Shown in pieces: positions 3,499-53,921 of a DNA stretch of 64,000 nucleotides; the first letter of the stretch is position 1, and every line of letters begins with the position of its first letter. The DNA comes from Actinomycetota bacterium. Its GTDB lineage: Bacteria; Actinomycetota; Thermoleophilia; Gaiellales; Gaiellaceae. The translations under genes were made by a program, and so were the position numbers. The DNA lies in the NCBI GenBank assembly GCA_003162055.1, contig PMNA01000017.1, positions 62,001 through 126,000 of the forward strand, written 5' to 3'. The notes beneath the pieces were generated by a model. It searched no databases, was not told where the DNA came from, and saw only the letters and a program-made list of their open reading frames with translations.

Positions 3499-4914
3499 GC
3501 TCGGCTCCGGCGCAGCGGACGAGGACTTTCCGAGCTCCATCGCTACCAGCTCACCGATCTCCAACTCGAAGTTCGTGTGAGTGCCGGCCACGTAAGCCTC
3601 GCTGGCTCCGTCCAGCACCGCAACGAGCGCTCGAACGGCCGCCGGATCGAATTGCTTGCCGGACTCGCGCTCGAGGCGATCACGCGCCTCCTCGCCGCTC
3701 AGCGCGATCCGGTAGGGACGCTCCGAGGTCATCGCGCTGTAGGCGTCGGCGACGGCCACGATTCTCGAAAGAAGCGGTATCGCCTCGCCCGCGATCCCGC
3801 CCGGATAACCCTCGCCGTCAAAACGCTCATGGTGATGACGGACGGCGGTGGCTATCTCCTCGTATCCCTCGATCCGATCGAGTATCGAGGCACCGACCTC
3901 GGCGTGACTTTGCACGGCCGACCACTCACCGGTTGTCAGCGAGCCGCTCTTTTCCAACACACCGACCGGCACGCCGATCTTTCCGATGTCGTGGAGAAGC
4001 CCACATAGGTGAGCCTTTTCCCGCTCGCTCTGTGATAGCCCGGCCTCAATCGCAATATCGCGCGCGTAGATTGCGACGGCGGCCGAATGGCCCGCAGTGT
4101 AGTGATCTCTGGCGTCGAGGGCTGTGACTAGCGCGGTTGCAAACGACAGGTTTACTCTCGATAACTTCGCGACTGCGGATTCGAGCTCGTTAGTGGCACG
4201 CGCTTGCTCGCGATAGAGAACGAAGTAGCGCTGCGCCGCAATAGCCGGGCCGACAAAGATCACTGCCGACCACGGCGAAACGTGCACATACGCGTACGCG
4301 AGTCCGGCTATCACTGGAACATATACGACCATTCCGGTGAGGCCCACTTGTAGTAGCTCAAAGAAGTAAGTGCGGGGTGTCCATTTCTCTCGAATCGAGA
4401 GCGTTATCGCACCCGCAGCCGATTCGCCGCTAACGGTAACTACAGATGCGATTAGCGTAGATACGAAAAGTCCGCCGAGAGTCGTTTCGGGACTAATCGA
4501 TACGGCCGCAAGTCCTGCAGCTCCCAATACGAGACAGCGAGTACCGGACCAAATAACCCATCTCTCCCAGGGTCGTCCCAACTCGCCTAATAGACAAACG
4601 AAGGCGACGATTACCGCCGAAAGGGGTCCTAAAACAACGGCGGCGAAGATTAACGGCAAGAAGCTCACGGAGACCTCGAGATGAGGACTCAGTCGAACAT
4701 CGAGCCTCTCGCAGATATAAGCGGCCACGGCCATCATTGCCGTGGGCACTAGAGGTCCGAGGTGATAGCCGCGGTAGAGAAGGACCGACGAGAGTGCGGC
4801 CGCTCCGAGCGCTAGAAGAGCCCCATGACTGCGAAGGGCCAGCGTCTGTTGATGCGACGACAGCCGCCGTTCTGTTGTAATGTCGGCCTTCAGGGGGGTG
4901 CCGACCTTCTTCAC
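3490..4914 (-). CDS. HD-GYP domain phosphodiesterase-like protein with N-terminal membrane region
   Basis: LLHDIGKIGVP ... HHERFDGEGYPGG motifs; multiple N-terminal hydrophobic helices. Confidence 0.88.
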   Translation of the reverse strand: MKKVGTPLKADITTERRLSSHQQTLALRSHGALLALGAAALSSVLLYRGYHLGPLVPTAMMAVAAYICERLDVRLSPHLEVSVSFLPLIFAAVVLGPLSAVIVAFVCLLGELGRPWERWVIWSGTRCLVLGAAGLAAVSISPETTLGGLFVSTLIASVVTVSGESAAGAITLSIREKWTPRTYFFELLQVGLTGMVVYVPVIAGLAYAYVHVSPWSAVIFVGPAIAAQRYFVLYREQARATNELESAVAKLSRVNLSFATALVTALDARDHYTAGHSAAVAIYARDIAIEAGLSQSEREKAHLCGLLHDIGKIGVPVGVLEKSGSLTTGEWSAVQSHAEVGASILDRIEGYEEIATAVRHHHERFDGEGYPGGIAGEAIPLLSRIVAVADAYSAMTSERPYRIALSGEEARDRLERESGKQFDPAAVRALVAVLDGASEAYVAGTHTNFELEIGELVAMELGKSSSAAPEPSLV

Positions 4915-39159: not shown

Positions 39160-41448
39160 TTAAGAAAGGCCGCTCACGCTGACCGGAGTCGTGCTGTAGC
39201 CCGTCTCACCGTTACCGAGCTCGCCATCGTGGTTGTCGCCCCAGCATCTGACCGTGCGCGAGCGAAGCCGGGCGCACGCGAAGTCCGAGCCGGCACCGAT
39301 CGTCTTGGCGCCACTCAAGCCGCGGACTGTAACGGGGGCCTCGTGGTCGGCCAGCGCGCCCGTGCCCAGCTGACCGGAGGAGCCCATCCCCCAGCACTTG
39401 ATCCGACCCGAAGCGAGCCGGGCGCAGGTGTAGAAGTCGGCAGCGCTGACGGCCGTGGCGTTGGTGACGTGGGAGACCGTTACGGGGGTCAGGCTCGGCA
39501 TGCCCTTCCCATTTCCGAGCTGACCGTCATAGCCGCCGCCCCAACACTTGATCTTGCCGGTCGAAAGGACGGCGCAGGCGTGATCCATGCCGACACTGAC
39601 CTGTGTCGCGTTGTTGATCCCGACCACCGTTACCGGCTTCCAGCTCTTCTTCTTCTTTCCGTTCCCGAGCTCGCCGTCTTCGCCATCGCCCCAACACTCG
39701 ACCTGCCCGCTGGCGAGGCGGGCACAGGCGGAGTCCGAGCCGGTGCTGACCTGCGTGGCATTCTTGATTCCGCTGACCGCGGCCGGCCTCGGCTTGTCCT
39801 CCGACTTGCTCGGCGAACCGCTGCCGAGCTCGCCGTTTCGGTTGAAGCCCCAGCACTTCACCGCCCCGGTCGCGAGTGCGGCGCAGGCGAACGCGTCGCC
39901 GCTTGCGACCTGGGTCGCGTTCGCCACTTTGCTCACGGTCACAGGGACAGATCTGTCGTTGGATACCCCGTTACCAAGCTGGCCGTCCAGACCTCGCCCC
40001 CAGCACTTGATTCTTCCACTGGAGACACGGGCGCAGACGAAGCTGTCGCCGATCGTGATCTGAGTCGCCTTCGCCACCTTTTTTGCCGCCACCGGGGTGG
40101 GACTAGAGATGAGCTTTCCGTCGCCGAGCTGACCGTCGAAGTTGTTTCCCCAGCACTTGATCTTCCCGCCGCCAAGAGCGGCGCAGGTGCTGTCGAAGCC
40201 GGCGCTCACGGACCTGGCGCCGGCCAGGCCGCTGACCTTCACCGGCTTCATCTGGTAGCCCAGCTTGCTGTTTCCAAGCTGGCCGTAGGTGTTGTCGCCC
40301 CAGCACTTGACCGATCCGTCGGCGAGGAGCGCGCAGCTATCCGAACTCGCGGAGCTGATCTGCGTGACGGTTGCGATGCCCTGCAACGGATCGGGTATGT
40401 CCATGCTCTCCGTCGAGCCGTTACCGAGCATCCCGTATCGGTTGTCTCCCCAGCAGGCGATAGTGCCCTTGGAGAGTAGGACGCACGAAAAATCGTCACC
40501 GGTCGCGATCTGCACCGCGTGCGTCGCGATCACGGGGCCACCGGCAGTCACGGGAGTAGGGCTGTCGTTTTGAGTCCCATCCCCGAGCTCGCCTTCGTAG
40601 TTGTCGCCCCAGCACGAAACCCGCCCACTCGAGAGAACCGCGCAGGTGTGATGACCGCCCGCACTGATCTGAGTCGCGCTCGTGATGCCGCTGACGCTGA
40701 CGGGTGTTGAGCTGCTCTTCCCCGCGCCGTTGCCGAGCTGGCCGATCGAGCCCGAGCCCCAGCACTTGGCCTGTCCGCCCGAGATGACCGCGCAGGTATG
40801 GAATTCGCCCACGCTGACCTGCGTCGCGCTCGTGATGCCGCTGACCGTCACGGGCGTCGAGCTGCTCTCCTTCGCGCCGTTTCCGAGCTGACCGTCGGCG
40901 CCGTAGCCCCAGCACTTGACCTGTCCGCCCGAGATAACAGCGCAGGCGTGAAACTCGCCCGTGCTGATTTGAATCGCGCTCGTGATGCCGGAGACCCGCA
41001 CCGGGGTCGAGCTGCTGTCTTTCTTTCCGTTTCCAAGCTGGTCGTAGGTGTTGTCGCCCCAGCACTCGACCGTACCGTCGGAGATGAGGGCGCAGGTGTA
41101 CCCGTAGCCGGCGCTGACCTGAGTCGCGTTGCTGACGCCGGCGACCTGCAGCGGCACCAGGCTGAGCGACTTGGTGTCGCTGCCAAGCTCGAGCGCTGAG
41201 TTGTCGCCCCAGCATTTGACCGTTCCGTCGGAGCTGAGCGCGCAGGTGTGGGTGCTGCCGGCACTGACCGAGATCGTGCTCGGCGTAACAGCCGTCACCC
41301 GAACGCCGGCGGTCTGCGCCGAGGCACTCCGCGCATTACTCCCGGCGAAGGCAAGGAGCAGCGCCACGCCGATCAGAAGCGCGGTTGTGCTGAGACGAGC
41401 GCTGAGATCAAACGACTCTCTCGACGGACGGCGGGCCATGTCGACCAT
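39160..41448 (-). CDS. Secreted RCC1-repeat protein (762 aa)
   Basis: More than 12 tandem units of form VSAGxxHTCALLSxGxVKCWGxNxxGQLGNG; N-terminal signal-like segment. Confidence 0.92.
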   Translation of the reverse strand: MVDMARRPSRESFDLSARLSTTALLIGVALLLAFAGSNARSASAQTAGVRVTAVTPSTISVSAGSTHTCALSSDGTVKCWGDNSALELGSDTKSLSLVPLQVAGVSNATQVSAGYGYTCALISDGTVECWGDNTYDQLGNGKKDSSSTPVRVSGITSAIQISTGEFHACAVISGGQVKCWGYGADGQLGNGAKESSSTPVTVSGITSATQVSVGEFHTCAVISGGQAKCWGSGSIGQLGNGAGKSSSTPVSVSGITSATQISAGGHHTCAVLSSGRVSCWGDNYEGELGDGTQNDSPTPVTAGGPVIATHAVQIATGDDFSCVLLSKGTIACWGDNRYGMLGNGSTESMDIPDPLQGIATVTQISSASSDSCALLADGSVKCWGDNTYGQLGNSKLGYQMKPVKVSGLAGARSVSAGFDSTCAALGGGKIKCWGNNFDGQLGDGKLISSPTPVAAKKVAKATQITIGDSFVCARVSSGRIKCWGRGLDGQLGNGVSNDRSVPVTVSKVANATQVASGDAFACAALATGAVKCWGFNRNGELGSGSPSKSEDKPRPAAVSGIKNATQVSTGSDSACARLASGQVECWGDGEDGELGNGKKKKSWKPVTVVGINNATQVSVGMDHACAVLSTGKIKCWGGGYDGQLGNGKGMPSLTPVTVSHVTNATAVSAADFYTCARLASGRIKCWGMGSSGQLGTGALADHEAPVTVRGLSGAKTIGAGSDFACARLRSRTVRCWGDNHDGELGNGETGYSTTPVSVSGLS

Positions 41449-43718: not shown

Positions 43719-44384
43719 CTAATTGATATCGGCGATGACCGCTGGCAGCGTTTTTTGTTCTTCTGGTAACGCTACGCGCGACCAATAGCCGTGTGCACGA
43801 TGAAGAAGATCATGAAGATATATCGGAGGGACGATCCCATGACGAGGAATCAAAGAGTGCGATAAACCCTCATATAGTTGGCGAGTCGGAAGCGCGAGCG
43901 CGCGTTTAAAATCAATGAAGAGGTCAGAATATGCGACTTCCGCATAGGTGTTGTCGCCTTCTTCAGCAGTCTGCTCACTCACGTGGTGCGGTGGGAGGCG
44001 ATGATAACGCTCATCCTGATTTTGCCTTACCCGTTTCCAAATCTCGCTTCCCTTAATAAGATACGAGCGAATCGTCGCTTCTTCATAAACATCGCACATC
44101 ACGATATGGGACACGCAACTACGATCGGTATCGATTTCCTTTGCCTGAGGTGAGTAATCGCTCTTAGACTCGGTGCTCGTAAATCGTGCGGCAAAATCCC
44201 ATTGCAGGTCGCATTCCTGAGTCAGGATTATCATTAATGGATGATCGATTACCTTGAACTGTAGTCCTTCATCTTCGCTCTGCCGGACCGGAGGCGAGAT
44301 GGGTTGTTGATCGCAAATAGGACCTATGAGCTCTCCCTGCCGGAGAGCGCCTGAATTCGGCGATGACAGGTAGCGGTAGGGCAG
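43719..44384 (-). CDS. Hypothetical protein with TQECDL motif; probable CTG start upstream of the listed ATG (44234)
   Basis: Frame stays open to 44384: (M)PYRYLSSPNSGALRQGELIGPICDQQPISPPVRQSEDEGLQFKVIDHPLMIILTQECDLQWDF..., with RBS-like AAGGGAGAGA just upstream. Confidence 0.62.
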   Translation of the reverse strand: MPYRYLSSPNSGALRQGELIGPICDQQPISPPVRQSEDEGLQFKVIDHPLMIILTQECDLQWDFAARFTSTESKSDYSPQAKEIDTDRSCVSHIVMCDVYEEATIRSYLIKGSEIWKRVRQNQDERYHRLPPHHVSEQTAEEGDNTYAEVAYSDLFIDFKRALALPTRQLYEGLSHSLIPRHGIVPPIYLHDLLHRAHGYWSRVALPEEQKTLPAVIADIN

Positions 44385-44405
44385 GGTTCTCTCCCTTAAT
44401 AGAAC

Positions 44406-44831
44406 TCAGGAACCTATTACAAACGGAGCGCGTTCTTCATAACTAACGACTACTCCGTGATGCTCCTGTGTGTCCGGCATCTCCGGAACAGCGAAGCGCT
44501 GGTTCTCGTCGTGGTACTCGAAGATATCGCGTAGGGACGTTAGCCCTTCGTCGAGTCCTTCGGTTGGCATTACCGTGACAAGAAAATACGCTACGAGCCG
44601 CCGCAAAGCTTCGTTTCCCTCGTCGTGCTGCGATTCGAAAGAGAGTTCGTACTCGCCAGTCGTGACGAGACCCTTTATCGCGCCTACGCCGATGTCTTCG
44701 GAAGAACAATCACGGCTCAACAGAACGTGGCCGAAGGGCGTCTCGAAGGGTCGGACGTATGGCCCAACGGAAAAGGTACCCGGATTGGCGATTGAACTCG
44801 TCCAGTGTGTTTCGGACACTATCGCCCCCAC
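44406..44831 (-). CDS. Hypothetical protein (141 aa), middle gene of a TIGR04255-type operon
   Basis: Overlaps the 3' end of the TIGR04255-like gene in another frame, consistent with translational coupling. Confidence 0.65.
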   Translation of the reverse strand: MGAIVSETHWTSSIANPGTFSVGPYVRPFETPFGHVLLSRDCSSEDIGVGAIKGLVTTGEYELSFESQHDEGNEALRRLVAYFLVTVMPTEGLDEGLTSLRDIFEYHDENQRFAVPEMPDTQEHHGVVVSYEERAPFVIGS

Positions 44832-45498
44832 TCCTCTCAGTCGTAAAGTAATCGGCGTCGATAAGGTACGTCTGTCCAGAAGATTCAGCTTCTAACCCTT
44901 GGAGTACCCTCACCTGTTGGGGTGTACCGGGAGTCAGATCAATCACACACTCGCTACGAATAGCCGACACATCACCCTCGTCAATATCATCGGCACCAAG
45001 CATGCCTGTGAAAGCAGGGTTAAGTAGATCCTTCCAAGCTCGATCCTTGAAGTTCAGGGCGCCTTTTCGGACAATATTCCGATATCGAAGTCCAATGCGA
45101 GTATAAAACGAAGGCCGATATATCTCTTCGAGCGCTGCCTTCGCTCGTTCGATTTCTTTCACCATCAAATCCCATTCAACATAATCGCGCTCTGTTATTG
45201 CAACAAACTCGGAGGTTAGCGATATAGAACGGTGGGAATCTTCGGTCTCGAATGTGTGAGTAATCGCGTTGAGCGGTCGCTGAAGCGGTAATTCAGAAAG
45301 AACTCCGGAAAGATTCTCTGGAAGTTGCGAGAATGGATCCTGCCTCCGGTATAGAGGATACGAGTCGCGAATTGACTCTTGAAAACTAGATGGCGGCTCC
45401 GTCAAGATCGTGAGCACGGGAGGAAAACGCAACTGACAGATCACCTCTGTCAGGGTGTTCTCTTCAAAAACGAGGCGCGGTGATTGAGGAAACGGCAT
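44710..45498 (-). CDS. TIGR04255-family-like protein (unknown function)
   Basis: MPFPQSPRLVFEENTLTEVICQLRFPPVLTILTEPPSSFQESIRDSYP, characteristic N-terminus of the family. Confidence 0.8.
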   Translation of the reverse strand: MPFPQSPRLVFEENTLTEVICQLRFPPVLTILTEPPSSFQESIRDSYPLYRRQDPFSQLPENLSGVLSELPLQRPLNAITHTFETEDSHRSISLTSEFVAITERDYVEWDLMVKEIERAKAALEEIYRPSFYTRIGLRYRNIVRKGALNFKDRAWKDLLNPAFTGMLGADDIDEGDVSAIRSECVIDLTPGTPQQVRVLQGLEAESSGQTYLIDADYFTTERSGGDSVRNTLDEFNRQSGYLFRWAIRPTLRDALRPRSVEP

Positions 45499-45719: not shown

Positions 45720-46985
45720 TCAGTCGGAGCGAGCAGCGAGCGGTGTTCCTGAAGCAGCGTGGCGGTAAGCCTCCAGTGCGCTTAGCGCGGCCTCGGCTTC
45801 TGTCGCTCCGGGATGTGCGTACACGCGCATGAAGAGCGCTCCCCCGTCGGCATGTCCGAGCCGAGCCGCTGCGGCCGGCGCCGGAACCCCCGCGGCCGCG
45901 AGCCAGGTGGCGTGAGAGTGCCGGAGCGTGTGGGCGGTTACACCCGACAGTCCCGCCGCCGCGGCGACACGCACGAGGCCGAAGCGAACGCGACCGGAGC
46001 GTTCGAGCGCTCGACCCTTGGCGTCGCTAAAGACCGGCGCTCCGTCGAGTGGACGGCCGCACGCGAGTCGGTGGCGAAGTAGAGCGGACACCGTTTCGGA
46101 GTCGAGCGGAATCGCACGCTCGCCGGCGTCGGTCTTGGTTGTCTCCCGCCGCACGTGCATCAGCGCGAGCTCAGAGGTGAGATCGAGACCCTCTGGGCCC
46201 CAGACGAGCCCGAGTGCTTCTGAGATCCGACAGCCCGTGCCAAGCAGCAGGCTTACGAGCGGTCCTAGTAGTGAACGTTTCCGCTCTGCGTCCTCTGCTC
46301 GCGCGGCCGCAAGCAAGCGCTCGGCCTCTGCGAGCGAGATGACGCTCGTTCTGCGTGGTGGCGGCGGTGGTAGGAGGAGCCGCGGCGGCAGCTCGTCGAT
46401 CAGCCCGCGCACGTAGCCGTCTCGCAGCACGGCGGACAAGGCCGCGGCGGCGGCTCGCGCCCGAGCCCTTCCTTCTCGCGCGGCAACGCTGTCAACGAGG
46501 CCCTGCGCCGCCCTCGTGTCGATCGCGCTCGCCGGGAGCTCGGCAAGCGTCAGGCCGCTGCGCGGATCGATGTGCGGTAGCACGCGCAGACGGAGCGCAA
46601 CCTCGTAGCCTGCGAGCGTCGTCAGCGCGTAGGTCTTGCGAGTACGAGTAAGCGCCTCTCCCCTACGCGCTCTGTGTAGGAACGAGACGGCGAGATCGCG
46701 GAGCGGCGGCGCCTCCAGACGTGGATCTGAAGGCACCTCGCCGCGGCGCAGGCTGTCGCGGGTCGACTCCGCCCACGAGACCGCCTCGCTGAGGGTCGCG
46801 AAGCTGCGCTCAAAGGAGCGGCCGGCCTTCTGAACATGGGCAACATAGAAGGGACGACAGCTGCAGCGACGAGCCGTCTCGCAGGATAGGGCGCACCTGC
46901 GCGAGTGCTGCTCGCGGACGCGGGGCGCGACGGTGCGCCGAAACGGTCGAGCGCCCTTCGATCTGCGATAGCGTGCCTCATGCAT
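45720..46985 (-). CDS. Tyrosine-type site-specific integrase
   Basis: GTGCRISEALGLVW; HTLRHSHATWLAAAGV; RLGHADGGALFMRVYAHP (R..HxxR..Y). Confidence 0.92.
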   Translation of the reverse strand: MHEARYRRSKGARPFRRTVAPRVREQHSRRCALSCETARRCSCRPFYVAHVQKAGRSFERSFATLSEAVSWAESTRDSLRRGEVPSDPRLEAPPLRDLAVSFLHRARRGEALTRTRKTYALTTLAGYEVALRLRVLPHIDPRSGLTLAELPASAIDTRAAQGLVDSVAAREGRARARAAAAALSAVLRDGYVRGLIDELPPRLLLPPPPPRRTSVISLAEAERLLAAARAEDAERKRSLLGPLVSLLLGTGCRISEALGLVWGPEGLDLTSELALMHVRRETTKTDAGERAIPLDSETVSALLRHRLACGRPLDGAPVFSDAKGRALERSGRVRFGLVRVAAAAGLSGVTAHTLRHSHATWLAAAGVPAPAAAARLGHADGGALFMRVYAHPGATEAEAALSALEAYRHAASGTPLAARSD

Positions 46986-47079: not shown

Positions 47080-47346
47080 TCAACTGAGAGGGTCGGGAGA
47101 GTCGAAGAGCCAGCGCGCCTTCTGCGGCTCGGGACAGAGGCGAGCTCGACGAGGAGCGGCGCGTCTTACGAGCGGGCAGGTCGTACGTCTGCCGATGTAG
47201 CCGGCCAGGTCGAGCTCGCGCACACGCACGATCCTGCCGTCGCGAAAGACCGGCAGGGAGCCGCGCTCGATGCGGCGACGCAGCGTCCTGACCGAGCAGC
47301 CGACCAGGCCCGCCGCCTCTGAGAGCGTGAGCAAGCGCTCTGTCAC
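47080..47346 (-). CDS. Excisionase-like HTH (MerR/HTH_17) protein
   Basis: ERLLTLSEAAGLVGCSVRTLRRRIERGSLPVFRDGRIVRVRELDLAGYI; GTG start overlaps the upstream stop (GTGA). Confidence 0.82.
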   Translation of the reverse strand: MTERLLTLSEAAGLVGCSVRTLRRRIERGSLPVFRDGRIVRVRELDLAGYIGRRTTCPLVRRAAPRRARLCPEPQKARWLFDSPDPLS

Positions 47347-47576
47347 TCTCCAGACCTTCGACGCGGCCGTGTGCGGGCTTGCCAGCACGGGAAGCAGAGG
47401 ACGAGCCGGCAGTGCTCCTGGCGGGCAACCAGAAGCGGCCTTCCGTTCTCGTCGCGCGAGTGTCCGCAGCGAGCGCAGACGCCGAAGTGGAGTCGCGCCG
47501 CCCCCGACTTCCAGCGCGCGCGGAGAGCGGCGTCGGCCTCCAGCTCGACTTCGAGCTTGAGCTGCTCAGGCCACAT
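47343..47576 (-). CDS. Small zinc-ribbon protein (77 aa)
   Basis: MWPEQLKLEVELEADAALRARWKSGAARLHFGVCARCGHSRDENGRPLLVARQEHCRLVLCFPCW; overlaps neighbours. Confidence 0.6.
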   Translation of the reverse strand: MWPEQLKLEVELEADAALRARWKSGAARLHFGVCARCGHSRDENGRPLLVARQEHCRLVLCFPCWQARTRPRRRSGE

Positions 47577-48765
47577 CTCGAGCCTCCACGGGCTTGGCGC
47601 TCGCCGCGATGCGAGCGCGGGCGCGGTTGGCAACCTCGGGATCGAGCTCGACTCCGAGCGCGCGGCGGCCGCAGGCAAGCGCCGCCACGAGCGTTGTTCC
47701 CGAGCCGCAGAAGGGATCGAGCACGAGCTCGCCCGGATGAGACAAGCGCTCGATGTAGTAGCGAGCCTCCTCGGTCGCCTGCGCCCAATCGTGCAGGCTC
47801 TTGTCGGGTGCTCCACCGCTGACCATGTCGTCGACCACACGATCGCCCCCGTGCCCGCCCTTGACGAACCAGAGCACCGGCTTCCAGTTCACGCGCAGCT
47901 TCCTGCCGGGGAGCGAGCGGTGGTGACCGGGCGCGTGGCGGATCGCGAGCGTCCACCAGTAGTCGAGGCTCTCCGAGAGCGCCGGGAGCGTGCGCGGCAG
48001 GACGTAGCCGCCCGTGTAGGCAAGCAGGCTCCCGCCGGGACGAAGCAGGCGCGCGGCCTGACGACCGAGCTCGCCGTAGATCCACTCGAGATCCATGCGC
48101 GCGAGGTAGGGCGGGTCGGTGAAGATCAGGTCGACCGACTCCGGCTCGAGCTCCGCTAAGACAACGGCGAAGTCGCCGGTCCTGACCTCCACCTCGGGCG
48201 GTAGCGAGGCGAAGCGGCCAACCTCGGCCGCCTCGGCGCGTATCTGCTCGAGCCTGCGCTTACGCTTCTCCTCGCGCGCCTCTTTCGCCGAGAACTCGCA
48301 GTTGTCGACCGCCTGTGCCAGGTCGGGATACTCGCTTAGTTCCGAGGCGAGCTCGAGCCTGCGGCGGGCGGTACGTGGATCTACTCCCAGCTCGCGCGCC
48401 AGCTCCTTGGCCCGACCAACGGACACGCTGTCCGTTGATCGTCTGTCGCCGCCGCGGCCGAGACGAATGCCGCGGAGAGTGGCCAGCTGCTCGAAGCCCT
48501 GCGCCCAGGAGACAGGTCCCAGCTGGCGGCGCAGCATGTTTAGGCGAAGCGCATGCTCGATCCGCTCCTCAGCGCTATCGAAGCTGCGATAGAGAACGGG
48601 CGGTAGGGGAAGACCGAGCTCCTCGCAGGCGCGGATGCGGTGATGACCGTCTAGCACCTCGCCCGTCTTCTCATCCAGCTCGACCGGTACGAGCACGCCG
48701 TGCTTGGCGATGTCGGCCTTGAGCGCCTCGTACTGCTCGGGAGGCAGCGGTGATAGGACGTTCAC
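47566..48765 (-). CDS. ParB-like N-terminal domain fused to DNA N6/N4 methyltransferase
   Basis: DGHHRIRACEELGLPLPPVLY; FTDPPYLARMDLEWIYGEL; LVLDPFCGSGTTLVAAL; GTG start inferred. Confidence 0.88.
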   Translation of the reverse strand: MNVLSPLPPEQYEALKADIAKHGVLVPVELDEKTGEVLDGHHRIRACEELGLPLPPVLYRSFDSAEERIEHALRLNMLRRQLGPVSWAQGFEQLATLRGIRLGRGGDRRSTDSVSVGRAKELARELGVDPRTARRRLELASELSEYPDLAQAVDNCEFSAKEAREEKRKRRLEQIRAEAAEVGRFASLPPEVEVRTGDFAVVLAELEPESVDLIFTDPPYLARMDLEWIYGELGRQAARLLRPGGSLLAYTGGYVLPRTLPALSESLDYWWTLAIRHAPGHHRSLPGRKLRVNWKPVLWFVKGGHGGDRVVDDMVSGGAPDKSLHDWAQATEEARYYIERLSHPGELVLDPFCGSGTTLVAALACGRRALGVELDPEVANRARARIAASAKPVEARDVA

Positions 48766-50162
48766 CTCGCTGCCTCCGTGGCTCCGACCCCGTTTGGCGA
48801 CGGGACGAGCGGATGACAGACGCCGCAGATACGTCGTCCGTCTGCCGTCAGCCAATCGAATTCGCGGTGGCTCGGATATGGGCAGGGCTCACCGGCACCC
48901 GCGCTTGCCGCGACATGCGCGACATCGGCTTGGTTGAGCCGGAAACTGCCGTTTTCGATCCGCGACGGATGGGGCGATGTCGCGGCAGTCGGATCCGCCG
49001 TATCTGGCACTGCGACTGGGATGTCGCCCATGTCGCGGCTCGTGGCGGCAGAGGCGCCCTTGGGCTGAGGGGAGAGGTAGCGGCGGAAGGCATCTACGAA
49101 GTCCACGCGCCGATAGCCCTTGAGCGCTTTGTCGTCGACACGCAAGTCGCGCGGCCGGATCCCGTAGGGCCTGAGCAGACCGGCGAGCCTGCGAGGGCTG
49201 AGCCGGCCACCGCCATAGAAGTCGCCCCAGGGACTCTCTTCGATCGCCGCCAGCGCCTCCAAGAGCGCCTCCGTGGGCAGCTGCGGCGACTCCCCGCTGC
49301 CGAACACCTGGCGGATGTCGGCCAGCAGCCGGATGCCGAACGAGACCCCGTCTGCTTCCTGCTCCTGGCCGCGAAGCGCGACGAATGCTGTCCGCGCCCG
49401 GTCGGGCCAGCAACCGCCCGCGCGGTCGGCGATCGCAACAAGCGGCTCGCATGCATCCTGCGCCCGGTCGTCGAGCTCGTCGGGAAGCTCCGGCCGAGCT
49501 GCCGCAAGCTCCTCGAGATGCGCGGCGGCGAACTCTTCCCCCCGAGCGCAGAGCTCTTTCGCCTCTGACTCAGCGTCGCGCGTGCGAAAGCGCTCGACTC
49601 GCTCGGACGGCGCGCGACGCTTGAGCCGGATCGGAAGTGAGCGATCCGCGACCGTGTCGGGCAGCGCACCGATTCCGGCTAGAGCCTTAGGGCCGAAGAC
49701 CTCGAACTCCTTGACCTGCGTATTTCGCTCTCCTACGCAGCGCAGCACGGGCATCCCGCGGCGGTGGCCGGAGTTGAGAAGCGCGCGCAAGTCCTCGTGG
49801 TTGCCGTTCGCCTTGGCGCCAAAGATGGCATCGACCTCATCCATCAAGAGCGTCCGCGGCGGAGATACTGCGAGCGAGCGGAAGAGCGCCGCTTCGGTAG
49901 TACCTGCAGATCGAAGCGGACGGGCAACAAGGAGCGCGAGCACCTCGAGCAGGCGGGACTTGCCGGAGCGCTTCTCAGCCGAGGTGATGGCAAGGTAGGG
50001 GGTCGCAAGCGCAGCCTCGATGCAGTAGCCGTGGAGGATCCAGAGAGCGATCGCATCTGCCTGCGCCTCGGAGACGATCACGAACCGGCGCAGGAACGAG
50101 ACGAAGTCCTCTAAGAGCGCCGCGCCCTGAACTGGATCTGGAAATCTGGTTTCGAGCGCCAT
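48762..50162 (-). CDS. DUF3631-like P-loop protein (mobile-element replication type)
   Basis: AITSAEKRSGKSRLLEVLALL; TLLMDEVDAIFG; DRSLPIRLKRR; C-terminal YGIRPRDLRVDDKALKGYRRVDFVDAFRRYL. Confidence 0.83.
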   Translation of the reverse strand: MALETRFPDPVQGAALLEDFVSFLRRFVIVSEAQADAIALWILHGYCIEAALATPYLAITSAEKRSGKSRLLEVLALLVARPLRSAGTTEAALFRSLAVSPPRTLLMDEVDAIFGAKANGNHEDLRALLNSGHRRGMPVLRCVGERNTQVKEFEVFGPKALAGIGALPDTVADRSLPIRLKRRAPSERVERFRTRDAESEAKELCARGEEFAAAHLEELAAARPELPDELDDRAQDACEPLVAIADRAGGCWPDRARTAFVALRGQEQEADGVSFGIRLLADIRQVFGSGESPQLPTEALLEALAAIEESPWGDFYGGGRLSPRRLAGLLRPYGIRPRDLRVDDKALKGYRRVDFVDAFRRYLSPQPKGASAATSRDMGDIPVAVPDTADPTAATSPHPSRIENGSFRLNQADVAHVAASAGAGEPCPYPSHREFDWLTADGRRICGVCHPLVPSPNGVGATEAAR

Positions 50163-52640: not shown

Positions 52641-53921
52641 GTGACGCTCGATCGAAACGAAGAGGCGATCGCGACCTACGAGGAGATCGTGCGCCGCTTT
52701 AGCGAGGATCCCGACCCGGCCTTGCGCGTACAAGCGGCGGAGGCGCTCGAAAACAAGTGCGTTGCGCTCGACACGCTCGGTCGGAGTGAGGAGAAGATCG
52801 CCACCTACGAGGAGTCGGTGCGCCTCTTCGGCGAGGATCCCGACCCGGCCCTGCGCGTGCAGGCGGCGATGTCGCTCGTTAGTAAGTCCTATGAGCAAGC
52901 GACGCTCGGTCGAAATGAAGAAGCGATCGCCAGCTGCGAGGAGGCTGTGCGCCGCTTCGGCGAGGATCCCGACCCGGCCCCGCGTAAGCAGGCGGCGTCG
53001 GCGTTGTTCGACAAGGGCCTTGTGCTTTGCCTGCTCGATCGAAACGAGGAGGCAATCGCTACCTACGAGGAGGCTGTGCGCCGCTTCGGCGAGGATCCCG
53101 ACCCGGCTCTGCGTGAGCCGGTGGCAGCGGCGCTCGGCAGCAAGGGCGAAACGCTCGGCGATCTCGGCCGAAACGAAGAGGCGATCGCGACCTACGAGGA
53201 GATCGTGCGCCGCTTCGGCGAGGATCCCGACCCGGCCCTACGCGAGCTGGTGGCGGCGGCGCTTGTCAGCAAGGGTGCCACGCTCGGCGATCTCGACCGA
53301 AACGAAGAGGCGATCGCGACCTACGAGGAGATCGTGCGCCGCTTCGGCGAGGACACTGACCTCCCCGTACGCACACTGGTCGCGAGGGCACTCGATGGCA
53401 AGGACGTTCTACTTAGAGAGAACGGCGGAAGCGACGAGGCAATAATCGCGAACGATGACGAGATCGTGCGCCGCTTCGTTGAGGATCCCGACCCGGCTCT
53501 GCGCGAGCGGGCAGCAAGGGCGCTCTTCGGCAAGTTCGTCCTCGGCCAGGAGGAGGAGGGGACCGCAGCCTTAGAGGAGATCGTGCGCCGCTTCGGCGAA
53601 GAAACCGAGCCAGGTATCAGTGGATATGTTGAGACTGCGGTCAAAGCTCTAAAGAACACGCCTGGCAGCGAATTATGGCGCGAGATGCGTATGGAGCGGA
53701 CGTTGCAGAGGTGCAGATCGTTCAAGCTCTGGGTCATCGCGCTCGGTGCCATCGCAGTAGCCGTTTTCGCGTTGTTGGAGTTGATAGCCGGGAAGTGGGT
53801 TGCGGCGCTATTACTCTTCTTCGTCGGCGAGGCCGTCTGGGAGTTCGTCGCGGACATAGTGACGGGCGTCCTCGTCTCGCCGTTTATCGGCGCCGCTTTG
53901 TTTTTCAACCGCCGCAGGTGA
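52641..53921 (+). CDS. TPR-like protein of near-identical 43-aa repeats with C-terminal membrane segments
   Basis: Repeats of RNEEAIATYEEIVRRFGEDPDPALRE.VAAAL.SKG..LGDL; C-terminal hydrophobic helices. Confidence 0.85.
   Translation: MTLDRNEEAIATYEEIVRRFSEDPDPALRVQAAEALENKCVALDTLGRSEEKIATYEESVRLFGEDPDPALRVQAAMSLVSKSYEQATLGRNEEAIASCEEAVRRFGEDPDPAPRKQAASALFDKGLVLCLLDRNEEAIATYEEAVRRFGEDPDPALREPVAAALGSKGETLGDLGRNEEAIATYEEIVRRFGEDPDPALRELVAAALVSKGATLGDLDRNEEAIATYEEIVRRFGEDTDLPVRTLVARALDGKDVLLRENGGSDEAIIANDDEIVRRFVEDPDPALRERAARALFGKFVLGQEEEGTAALEEIVRRFGEETEPGISGYVETAVKALKNTPGSELWREMRMERTLQRCRSFKLWVIALGAIAVAVFALLELIAGKWVAALLLFFVGEAVWEFVADIVTGVLVSPFIGAALFFNRRR

What the first reader, a model, noticed from the sequence alone, without database searches (positions are those of the whole stretch)
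43719..45498. Three-gene TIGR04255-type operon of unknown function next to the integrase
The genes are a TIGR04255-like protein (44710-45498), an overlapping 141-aa protein (44406-44831), and a TQECDL-motif protein whose frame extends to a CTG at 44384, only 21 nt after the previous stop. They are tightly packed, on one strand, visibly less GC-rich than the surroundings, and immediately downstream of the integrase module. TIGR04255 members are sporadically distributed and functionally undefined. Inference: candidate cargo module, possibly defence or interference with other phages and elements.
Basis: partly seen in the sequence, partly recalled or inferred. Interest (0 to 1): 0.72.

Follow-up and report, generated by a model that had tools for sequence, protein, structure and literature searches.

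The report
Three-gene toxin-antitoxin-like module beside integrase
Next to a phage-type integrase sits a compact, foreign-looking set of three genes that recurs in the same order in many unrelated bacteria, on plasmids and in prophages; its last gene is predicted to have the shape of the bacterial RNA-cutting toxin MazF, so it is probably an uncharacterised self-poisoning or anti-phage system, although nobody has tested it.

Summary
Window 43719-45498 (-) encodes A (TIGR04255, E 8e-33), B (start corrected to GTG 44819) and C (CTG 44384). It is the lowest-GC 1.8-kb stretch of the window (51% against 65%) and lies just downstream of a tyrosine integrase.

The three genes co-occur. Exactly this A-B-C order recurs in ten genomes of Armatimonadota, Chloroflexota, Acidobacteriota, Calditrichota and Alphaproteobacteria, and in one IMG/VR contig. 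A broader set (plasmids, genomes of the window's phylum, a prophage-like contig) has A + Xre-like HTH protein + a relative of C. The tree of A sorts by partner type. B starts about 110 nt inside A behind an embedded Shine-Dalgarno site in most relatives.

C belongs to an unnamed family marked by xGE/D[I/V] and [TS]QxCD[L/I]. AlphaFold/Foldseek match it to MazF/PemK toxins, but MazF's catalytic Arg/Thr are not kept and sequence profiles do not connect the two. Relatives of C are also fused to response-regulator receivers beside a histidine kinase and a DNA methyltransferase.

Most likely a TA-like conflict module: C effector, B neutraliser/adaptor, A accessory or sensor. Function is untested. 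It matches no PADLOC family, and an open-access full-text search found no paper naming TIGR04255.

The parts
44710..45498 (-). Gene A: TIGR04255 family protein, 262 aa
   Evidence: NCBIfam TIGR04255, 114 bits against cut-off 30; 41-44% identical homologues in other phyla; AlphaFold mean pLDDT 93.7
44406..44819 (-). Gene B: 137 aa (corrected start GTG 44819), helical-looking core RxxxxxLxxxMPxxGLxEaLxSL plus a C-terminal tail that ends RPxxxIxx in most relatives; candidate antitoxin/adaptor
   Evidence: conserved between A and C in 11 other loci (alignment A7); tblastn 3e-9 to L056, 2e-6 to L057; no Pfam/NCBIfam/PADLOC match
44710..44819 (-). 110-nt overlap of the 3' end of A with the 5' end of B (frame +1)
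   Evidence: start 98-122 nt inside A with SD-like 4-mer in 17 of 21 related loci; background 12% of NTG codons
44831..44835 (-). Shine-Dalgarno sequence AGGAG for B, inside A (a loop-coding part of A between a strand and a helix)
   Evidence: sequence, 11 nt upstream of GTG 44819; loop position from model
43719..44384 (-). Gene C: 221 aa from CTG 44384; divergent MazF/PemK-fold protein, candidate effector/toxin
   Evidence: homologous to the third gene in ten other genomes (profile E 3e-61 or better, seeds included); AlphaFold pLDDT 77; Foldseek PDB top 40 all MazF/Kid family, top viral hit PemK-like
44205..44222 (-). Codons of the signature TQECDL (residues 55-60 of C)
   Evidence: C58, D59, L60 invariant in the core family; Q, C, D invariant in the wider set
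44391..44396 (-). Shine-Dalgarno-like AGGGAG (GGAG 6 nt before CTG 44384)
   Evidence: sequence
45720..46985 (-). Tyrosine-type integrase directly upstream (context, not part of the module)
   Evidence: PF00589 E 3e-17; GC 0.70
47080..47388 (-). Excisionase-like HTH_17 protein (context)
   Evidence: PF12728 E 2e-8
47566..50162 (-). DNA methylase (N6_N4_Mtase) and DUF3631 genes, probably of the same integrated element (context)
   Evidence: PF01555 E 6e-17; PF12307 E 8e-54

Best explanation
The three genes form one mobile conflict module of toxin-antitoxin type, carried as cargo by an integrated element. C is the effector: a PemK/MazF-like beta-barrel with an inserted helical stretch and its own conserved site ([TS]QxCD[L/I], His48, Arg67 and others), which I infer acts on RNA or another translation target. 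B, translationally coupled to A and encoded just before C, is the partner that holds C in check; its conserved C-terminal tail is the candidate inhibitory peptide, and in most relatives of the wider family an Xre-like HTH protein fills B's place. A (TIGR04255) is the constant component: an accessory or sensor subunit that stabilises B-C or detects infection or element loss. Release of C would stop growth and so protect the population from phage or preserve the element. SHOWN: the operon-like layout, the conserved three-gene order, co-segregation, the foreign composition. PREDICTED: the folds. INFERRED: toxicity, neutralisation, the trigger.
For: Same A-B-C order in ten genomes of five phyla plus one IMG/VR contig, C found once per genome and only there. 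Wider A-HTH-C order on plasmids, in genomes of the window's phylum and in a prophage-like contig. Searching from C leads back to A: 5 of 5 opened plasmid hits and both IMG/VR hits. The A tree is clustered by partner type: 7 changes against 26.4 in shuffles, 0 of 200 as low, with phyla mixed. C fold: PDB top 20 hits all MazF at probability 0.97-1.00, viral top hit PemK-like, 0.99. Profile homology of core C, wide C and receiver-fused C, E 6e-9 to 2e-12: C is also the output domain of response regulators beside a histidine kinase and DNA methyltransferase. The HTH partner has sub-threshold Xre-like antitoxin HTH matches. C is broken or gone while A and the middle gene remain in L144 and L054, as when a toxin decays first.
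Against: No sequence-profile link of C to MazF (HHalign about 1%; PF02452 not hit). Foldseek E 1.8e-3 and TM 0.25-0.34 (query) / 0.45-0.66 (target), so a partial fold match. MazF catalytic Arg/Thr are not conserved in the plausible register (His48; Val/Tyr). B resembles no known antitoxin and is not HTH. No PADLOC match. The role of A is unknown, and solo A genes exist. No experiment.
Confidence: 0.5

Rival explanations
1. Signal-activated effector rather than TA: A and/or B sense infection (or a ligand) and switch C on; C is harmless until then, as an output domain is in the response-regulator fusions. Still a defence module, but not an antitoxin-neutralised one.
For: C homologues are output domains of receiver proteins next to a histidine kinase and DNA cytosine methyltransferase (homology); A is the constant component; SIR2-type and R-M-type neighbours in L058 and L056.
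Against: The window version has no receiver; HTH-type and small partners immediately before C look TA-like; two-gene HTH+C pairs without A exist.
Confidence: 0.25
2. Regulatory module: the C barrel binds nucleic acid or protein without cutting, and A-B-C control the element's own genes (lysogeny, transfer, excision).
For: HTH partner in the wide family; MazF catalytic residues absent (and inspection); location next to integrase.
Against: B in the window has no HTH; module found on unrelated replicons without a common element; compositionally foreign to the integrase itself; invariant Q-C-D and conserved H/R residues look like a functional site.
Confidence: 0.15
3. Toxin-antitoxin-chaperone (TAC) system with A as a SecB-type chaperone.
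For: Three genes including a constant third component; TAC systems such as CmdTAC defend against phage (PMC11618068).
Against: A's model matches guanidino-kinase and AdoMetDC-like folds weakly, and no SecB is among the 50 listed hits.
Confidence: 0.06
4. Unrelated hypothetical ORFs adjacent by chance, or decayed DNA.
For: Low GC and no Pfam/PHROG hits for B and C.
Against: Protein-level conservation and gene order across phyla, intact frames, embedded SD.
Confidence: 0.01

Closest known systems
NCBIfam TIGR04255 (sporadTIGR04255)
   Same: Gene A is a full-length member (114 bits, 3-251 of 252).
   Different: The family is undefined in function; no paper in the held open-access library names it. 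The window member has two dedicated partners, whereas Oscillospiraceae members are solo.
MazF/PemK/Kid mRNA interferases (type II TA toxins)
   Same: Predicted fold of C; N-terminal xGE/D[I/V] strand and a hydrophobic strand before the conserved site in the same register.
   Different: C is about twice as long with a helical insertion; no profile similarity; catalytic Arg and Thr (Arg25/Thr48 of Bacillus MazF, PMC7354611) not kept; a new invariant QxCD site; partner not MazE-like.
TAC systems, e.g. CmdTAC and M. tuberculosis TAC
   Same: Three-gene logic: toxin, antitoxin and a third protein needed for control; phage defence shown for CmdTAC (PMC11618068).
   Different: A is not SecB-like by fold; C is not an ADP-ribosyltransferase and has no HigB-like match.
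Xre-type antitoxins (RES-Xre / Xre-ParS)
   Same: The HTH partner of the wide family matches HTH_3 and, below threshold, Xre-like-HTH / Xre_ParS antitoxin.
   Different: The window's B is a different, non-HTH protein; the partner is not a RES toxin.

Membership tests
TIGR04255 | score above curated cut-off (30 bits) over the full model | tested here: met
   114.2 bits, 3-251 of 252
MazF/PemK toxins | Pfam PemK_toxin PF02452 match | tested here: not met
   no match for C or its relatives; PF02452 finds no match in the window's own genome
MazF/PemK toxins | PemK/MazF beta-barrel fold | tested here: inconclusive
   MazF/Kid are the top 40 PDB matches, mostly at probability 0.6-1.0, but E at best 1.8e-3 and partial TM; viral top match PemK-like
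MazF/PemK toxins | catalytic Arg and Thr | tested here: not met
   in the HHalign register the positions hold His48 and Val/Tyr; the register itself is low-confidence
MazF/PemK toxins | ribonuclease activity and growth arrest | not testable with these tools
   experiment needed
Type II toxin-antitoxin module | co-transcribed, tightly linked toxin and protein antitoxin, horizontally mobile | tested here: inconclusive
   linkage, overlap and mobility met; transcription, toxicity and neutralisation not testable
TAC (toxin-antitoxin-chaperone) | SecB-like chaperone gene | tested here: not met
   A model gives no SecB among the 50 listed PDB matches
Known anti-phage defence systems in PADLOC | match to a PADLOC-DB model | tested here: not met
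   only a chance-level hit of A (CARF1, E 0.0017, 16 bits); none for B or C; one marginal hit (E 0.0029) among relatives
RES-Xre TA | RES-domain toxin | tested here: not met
   no RES match among the partners scanned

The most novel reading that the evidence does not exclude
TIGR04255 marks an undescribed superfamily of mobile three-component immune or addiction systems whose effector is a MazF-fold enzyme with a new active site (QxCD[L/I]). The same effector domain is plugged into at least three control logics: TIGR04255 + small protein, TIGR04255 + Xre-like HTH, and histidine kinase + receiver beside a DNA methyltransferase.
Probability: 0.4. Interest if true: 0.8.

Novelty: new variant of a known kind. 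Interest (0 to 1): 0.62.

Why it matters
TIGR04255 is a widely scattered family with no assigned function. Placing it in recurring three-gene mobile modules whose last gene has a toxin-like fold gives the family its first testable role, names the likely active residues, and links it to a set of phosphorelay + DNA-methyltransferase loci that use the same effector domain. If confirmed it adds a new kind of three-part control to toxin-antitoxin and phage-defence biology.

Tried and rejected
Direct tblastn of B and C against plasmids found nothing; relatives only appeared through A. Divergent TIGR04255 alignment A1 was too variable for pattern scanning, replaced by a two-sequence alignment. Profile search of C (A4, A2) against PDB sequences gave only chance hits (NNMT, designed proteins). 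A against PDB sequences: Sp100 E 0.005 over 54 residues, taken as chance. A as a guanidino kinase or AdoMetDC: Foldseek probability up to 1.0 but TM at most 0.38 and rmsd near 10; not claimed. CARF match of A in PADLOC (E 0.0017, 16 bits) taken as chance. SecB/TAC idea for A dropped on fold. HHalign similarity of the helical-repeat middle proteins to B (93%) spans only residues 1-36, the part encoded in overlap with A, so it may be a shadow of A's conserved C-terminus and is not counted. No att repeat flanking the element was recognised. The third gene of the cyanobacterial modules is unrelated to C.

Full report
OBSERVATION. The three ORFs are present on the minus strand as described. A (44710-45498) is a full-length TIGR04255 protein (114 bits against a cut-off of 30). 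B and C match nothing in Pfam, NCBIfam, PADLOC or PHROGs above chance. The 1,780-nt module is the lowest-GC tile of the whole window (0.51 against a mean of 0.646) and its third codon positions are at 49-60% GC against 73-81% in the integrase, HTH and methylase genes beside it. It is therefore foreign even with respect to the integrase next door. Upstream lie a tyrosine integrase, an HTH_17 excisionase-like gene, a DNA methylase and a DUF3631 gene, which I read as an integrated element; no flanking att repeat was recognised.

GENE STARTS. For B the listed GTG at 44831 touches the AGGAG at 44835-44831; the next GTG, 44819, stands 11 nt behind it and is the likely start. In all 21 loci compared, a start codon exists in the +1 frame 96-123 nt before the stop of A, and in 17 it has an SD-like 4-mer at normal spacing, against 12% of NTG codons elsewhere in A. 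A long overlap with an internal ribosome-binding site is thus a conserved feature and argues for translational coupling of B to A. One locus (L067) has a clear alternative start with only a 4-nt overlap. For C, CTG 44384 is supported by the N-terminal conservation of homologues (RQGE[I/L]) and by GGAG 6 nt upstream.

CO-OCCURRENCE. A scan of one genome per species with A gave 80 loci. Ten non-Clostridia loci (L056-L060, L062, L063, L067, L080, L128: Armatimonadota, Chloroflexota including SAR202 and Dehalococcoidia, Acidobacteriota, Chelatococcus, Calditrichota) carry C directly after B; by tblastn the window C finds all ten at 8e-15 or better. In each of these genomes C occurs once, in this module. 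IMG/VR contig L148 has all three, and L149 has A and C beside phage endolysin-like genes at the contig end. Most remaining loci are Oscillospiraceae and other Clostridia in which A is solo and borders unrelated genes. In plasmids and in genomes of the window's own phylum, A is often followed by an Xre-like HTH protein and then by a longer protein with (T/S)QxCD(L/I); starting instead from that C protein, all five opened plasmid hits lie next to TIGR04255. A prophage-like contig filed under an Acinetobacter phage has the same order, with the variant motif SCD. In the maximum-likelihood tree of A the partner type needs 7 changes against 26.4 in shuffles (0 of 200 as low), while phyla are mixed within types: partners are inherited with A and the modules move between phyla.

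C FAMILY. Core C, wide C and the C-terminal half of certain response regulators are homologous by profile comparison (E 7e-11, 2e-12, 6e-9; control comparisons with A and B at about 2% probability or less). The response-regulator versions sit beside a sensor histidine kinase and a DNA cytosine methyltransferase on a Campylobacter and a Hymenobacter plasmid and, with similar neighbours, in a genome of the window's phylum. Two genomes have an HTH + C pair without A. The core alignment keeps E18, C58, D59, L60, D63, R67, D158, F159, Y171, R181, R196, R203 invariant, and G17, H48, N122, R126, Y127, H128 nearly so.

FOLD. The C model (pLDDT 77, 11 sequences) has MazF/Kid toxins as its top 40 PDB matches, and the best viral match is annotated PemK-like. 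The register had been guessed from sequence before the search: xGE/D[I/V] strand, then a hydrophobic strand before the conserved site, then a D-F-K/R segment where MazF has QIR. HHalign of wide C with PF02452 proteins falls into that same register but with only about 1% probability, so sequence does not prove homology. MazF's catalytic Arg and Thr are not retained. C is therefore 'MazF-like in predicted fold, not a member'. A's model is confident (pLDDT 93.7) but resembles guanidino kinases and AdoMetDC only weakly and not SecB.

MECHANISM. Best supported: a mobile TA-like conflict module in which C is the effector, B its neutraliser or adaptor (small core and a C-terminal tail that ends RPxxxIxx in most relatives) and A a constant accessory or sensor. 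Two loci, L144 and L054, keep A and the middle gene while C is broken or missing, weakly in favour of C being the costly part; L144 is from a draft assembly, so a sequencing error is possible there. R-M-type and SIR2-type neighbours in L056 and L058, and a ubiquitin-like operon beside L051, fit a defence setting. Toxicity, target and trigger are not shown.

NOVELTY. No open-access paper held names TIGR04255, related literature searches found no such module, and PADLOC has no model for it. Subscription papers and preprints are not searched, so prior description cannot be excluded. I rate it a new variant of the toxin-antitoxin/defence kind, with a real chance that it is an undescribed system family.

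Noticed in passing
L146 3881-5077; L150 5004-6026; L151 3368-4525: Receiver domain fused to a C-type domain, next to a sensor histidine kinase and a DNA cytosine methyltransferase (in L151 also DUF3883, ATP-binding and Z1-domain genes): a two-component, R-M-like system that uses the same effector domain.
   Followed up: partly
L145 4103-5024 (-); L147 about 3854-4748 (-): Two-gene pairs: small MerR/HTH-like protein whose 3' end overlaps a 187-190-aa TQTCDL protein, without TIGR04255.
   Followed up: partly
L064, L066, L070, L074, L089: Cyanobacterial/planctomycete modules: TIGR04255 + about 250-aa helical-repeat-like protein + unrelated 230-250-aa protein of unknown kind, with a similar A/B overlap; viral contigs L136 and L137 share the A + helical-repeat part.
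   Followed up: partly
L068-L135 (Oscillospiraceae and other Clostridia): Solo TIGR04255 without partners in many gut Clostridia, next to unrelated genes; its role must differ or be independent.
   Followed up: partly
L051 3168-5465: Multiubiquitin-domain protein, ThiF-type E1 and DUF6527 operon just upstream of a TIGR04255 module on a Rhizobium plasmid.
   Followed up: no
L056 3082-4701; L058 54-3608: DNA methylase with NA-iREase1 domain, and SIR2_2/DUF4020 protein, upstream of A-B-C modules (defence-type neighbours).
   Followed up: partly
window 52641-53921: TPR-repeat gene made of at least five 129-nt direct repeats, 76-79% alike.
   Followed up: no
window 47566-48855: DNA methylase (N6_N4_Mtase) preceded in the same ORF by a ParB-like N-terminus (by eye), between the integrase/HTH genes and a DUF3631 gene.
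   Followed up: no
window 39160-41448: 762-aa protein with RCC1-like repeats (GxxHTCAxxxxGxxxCWG), by eye.
   Followed up: no
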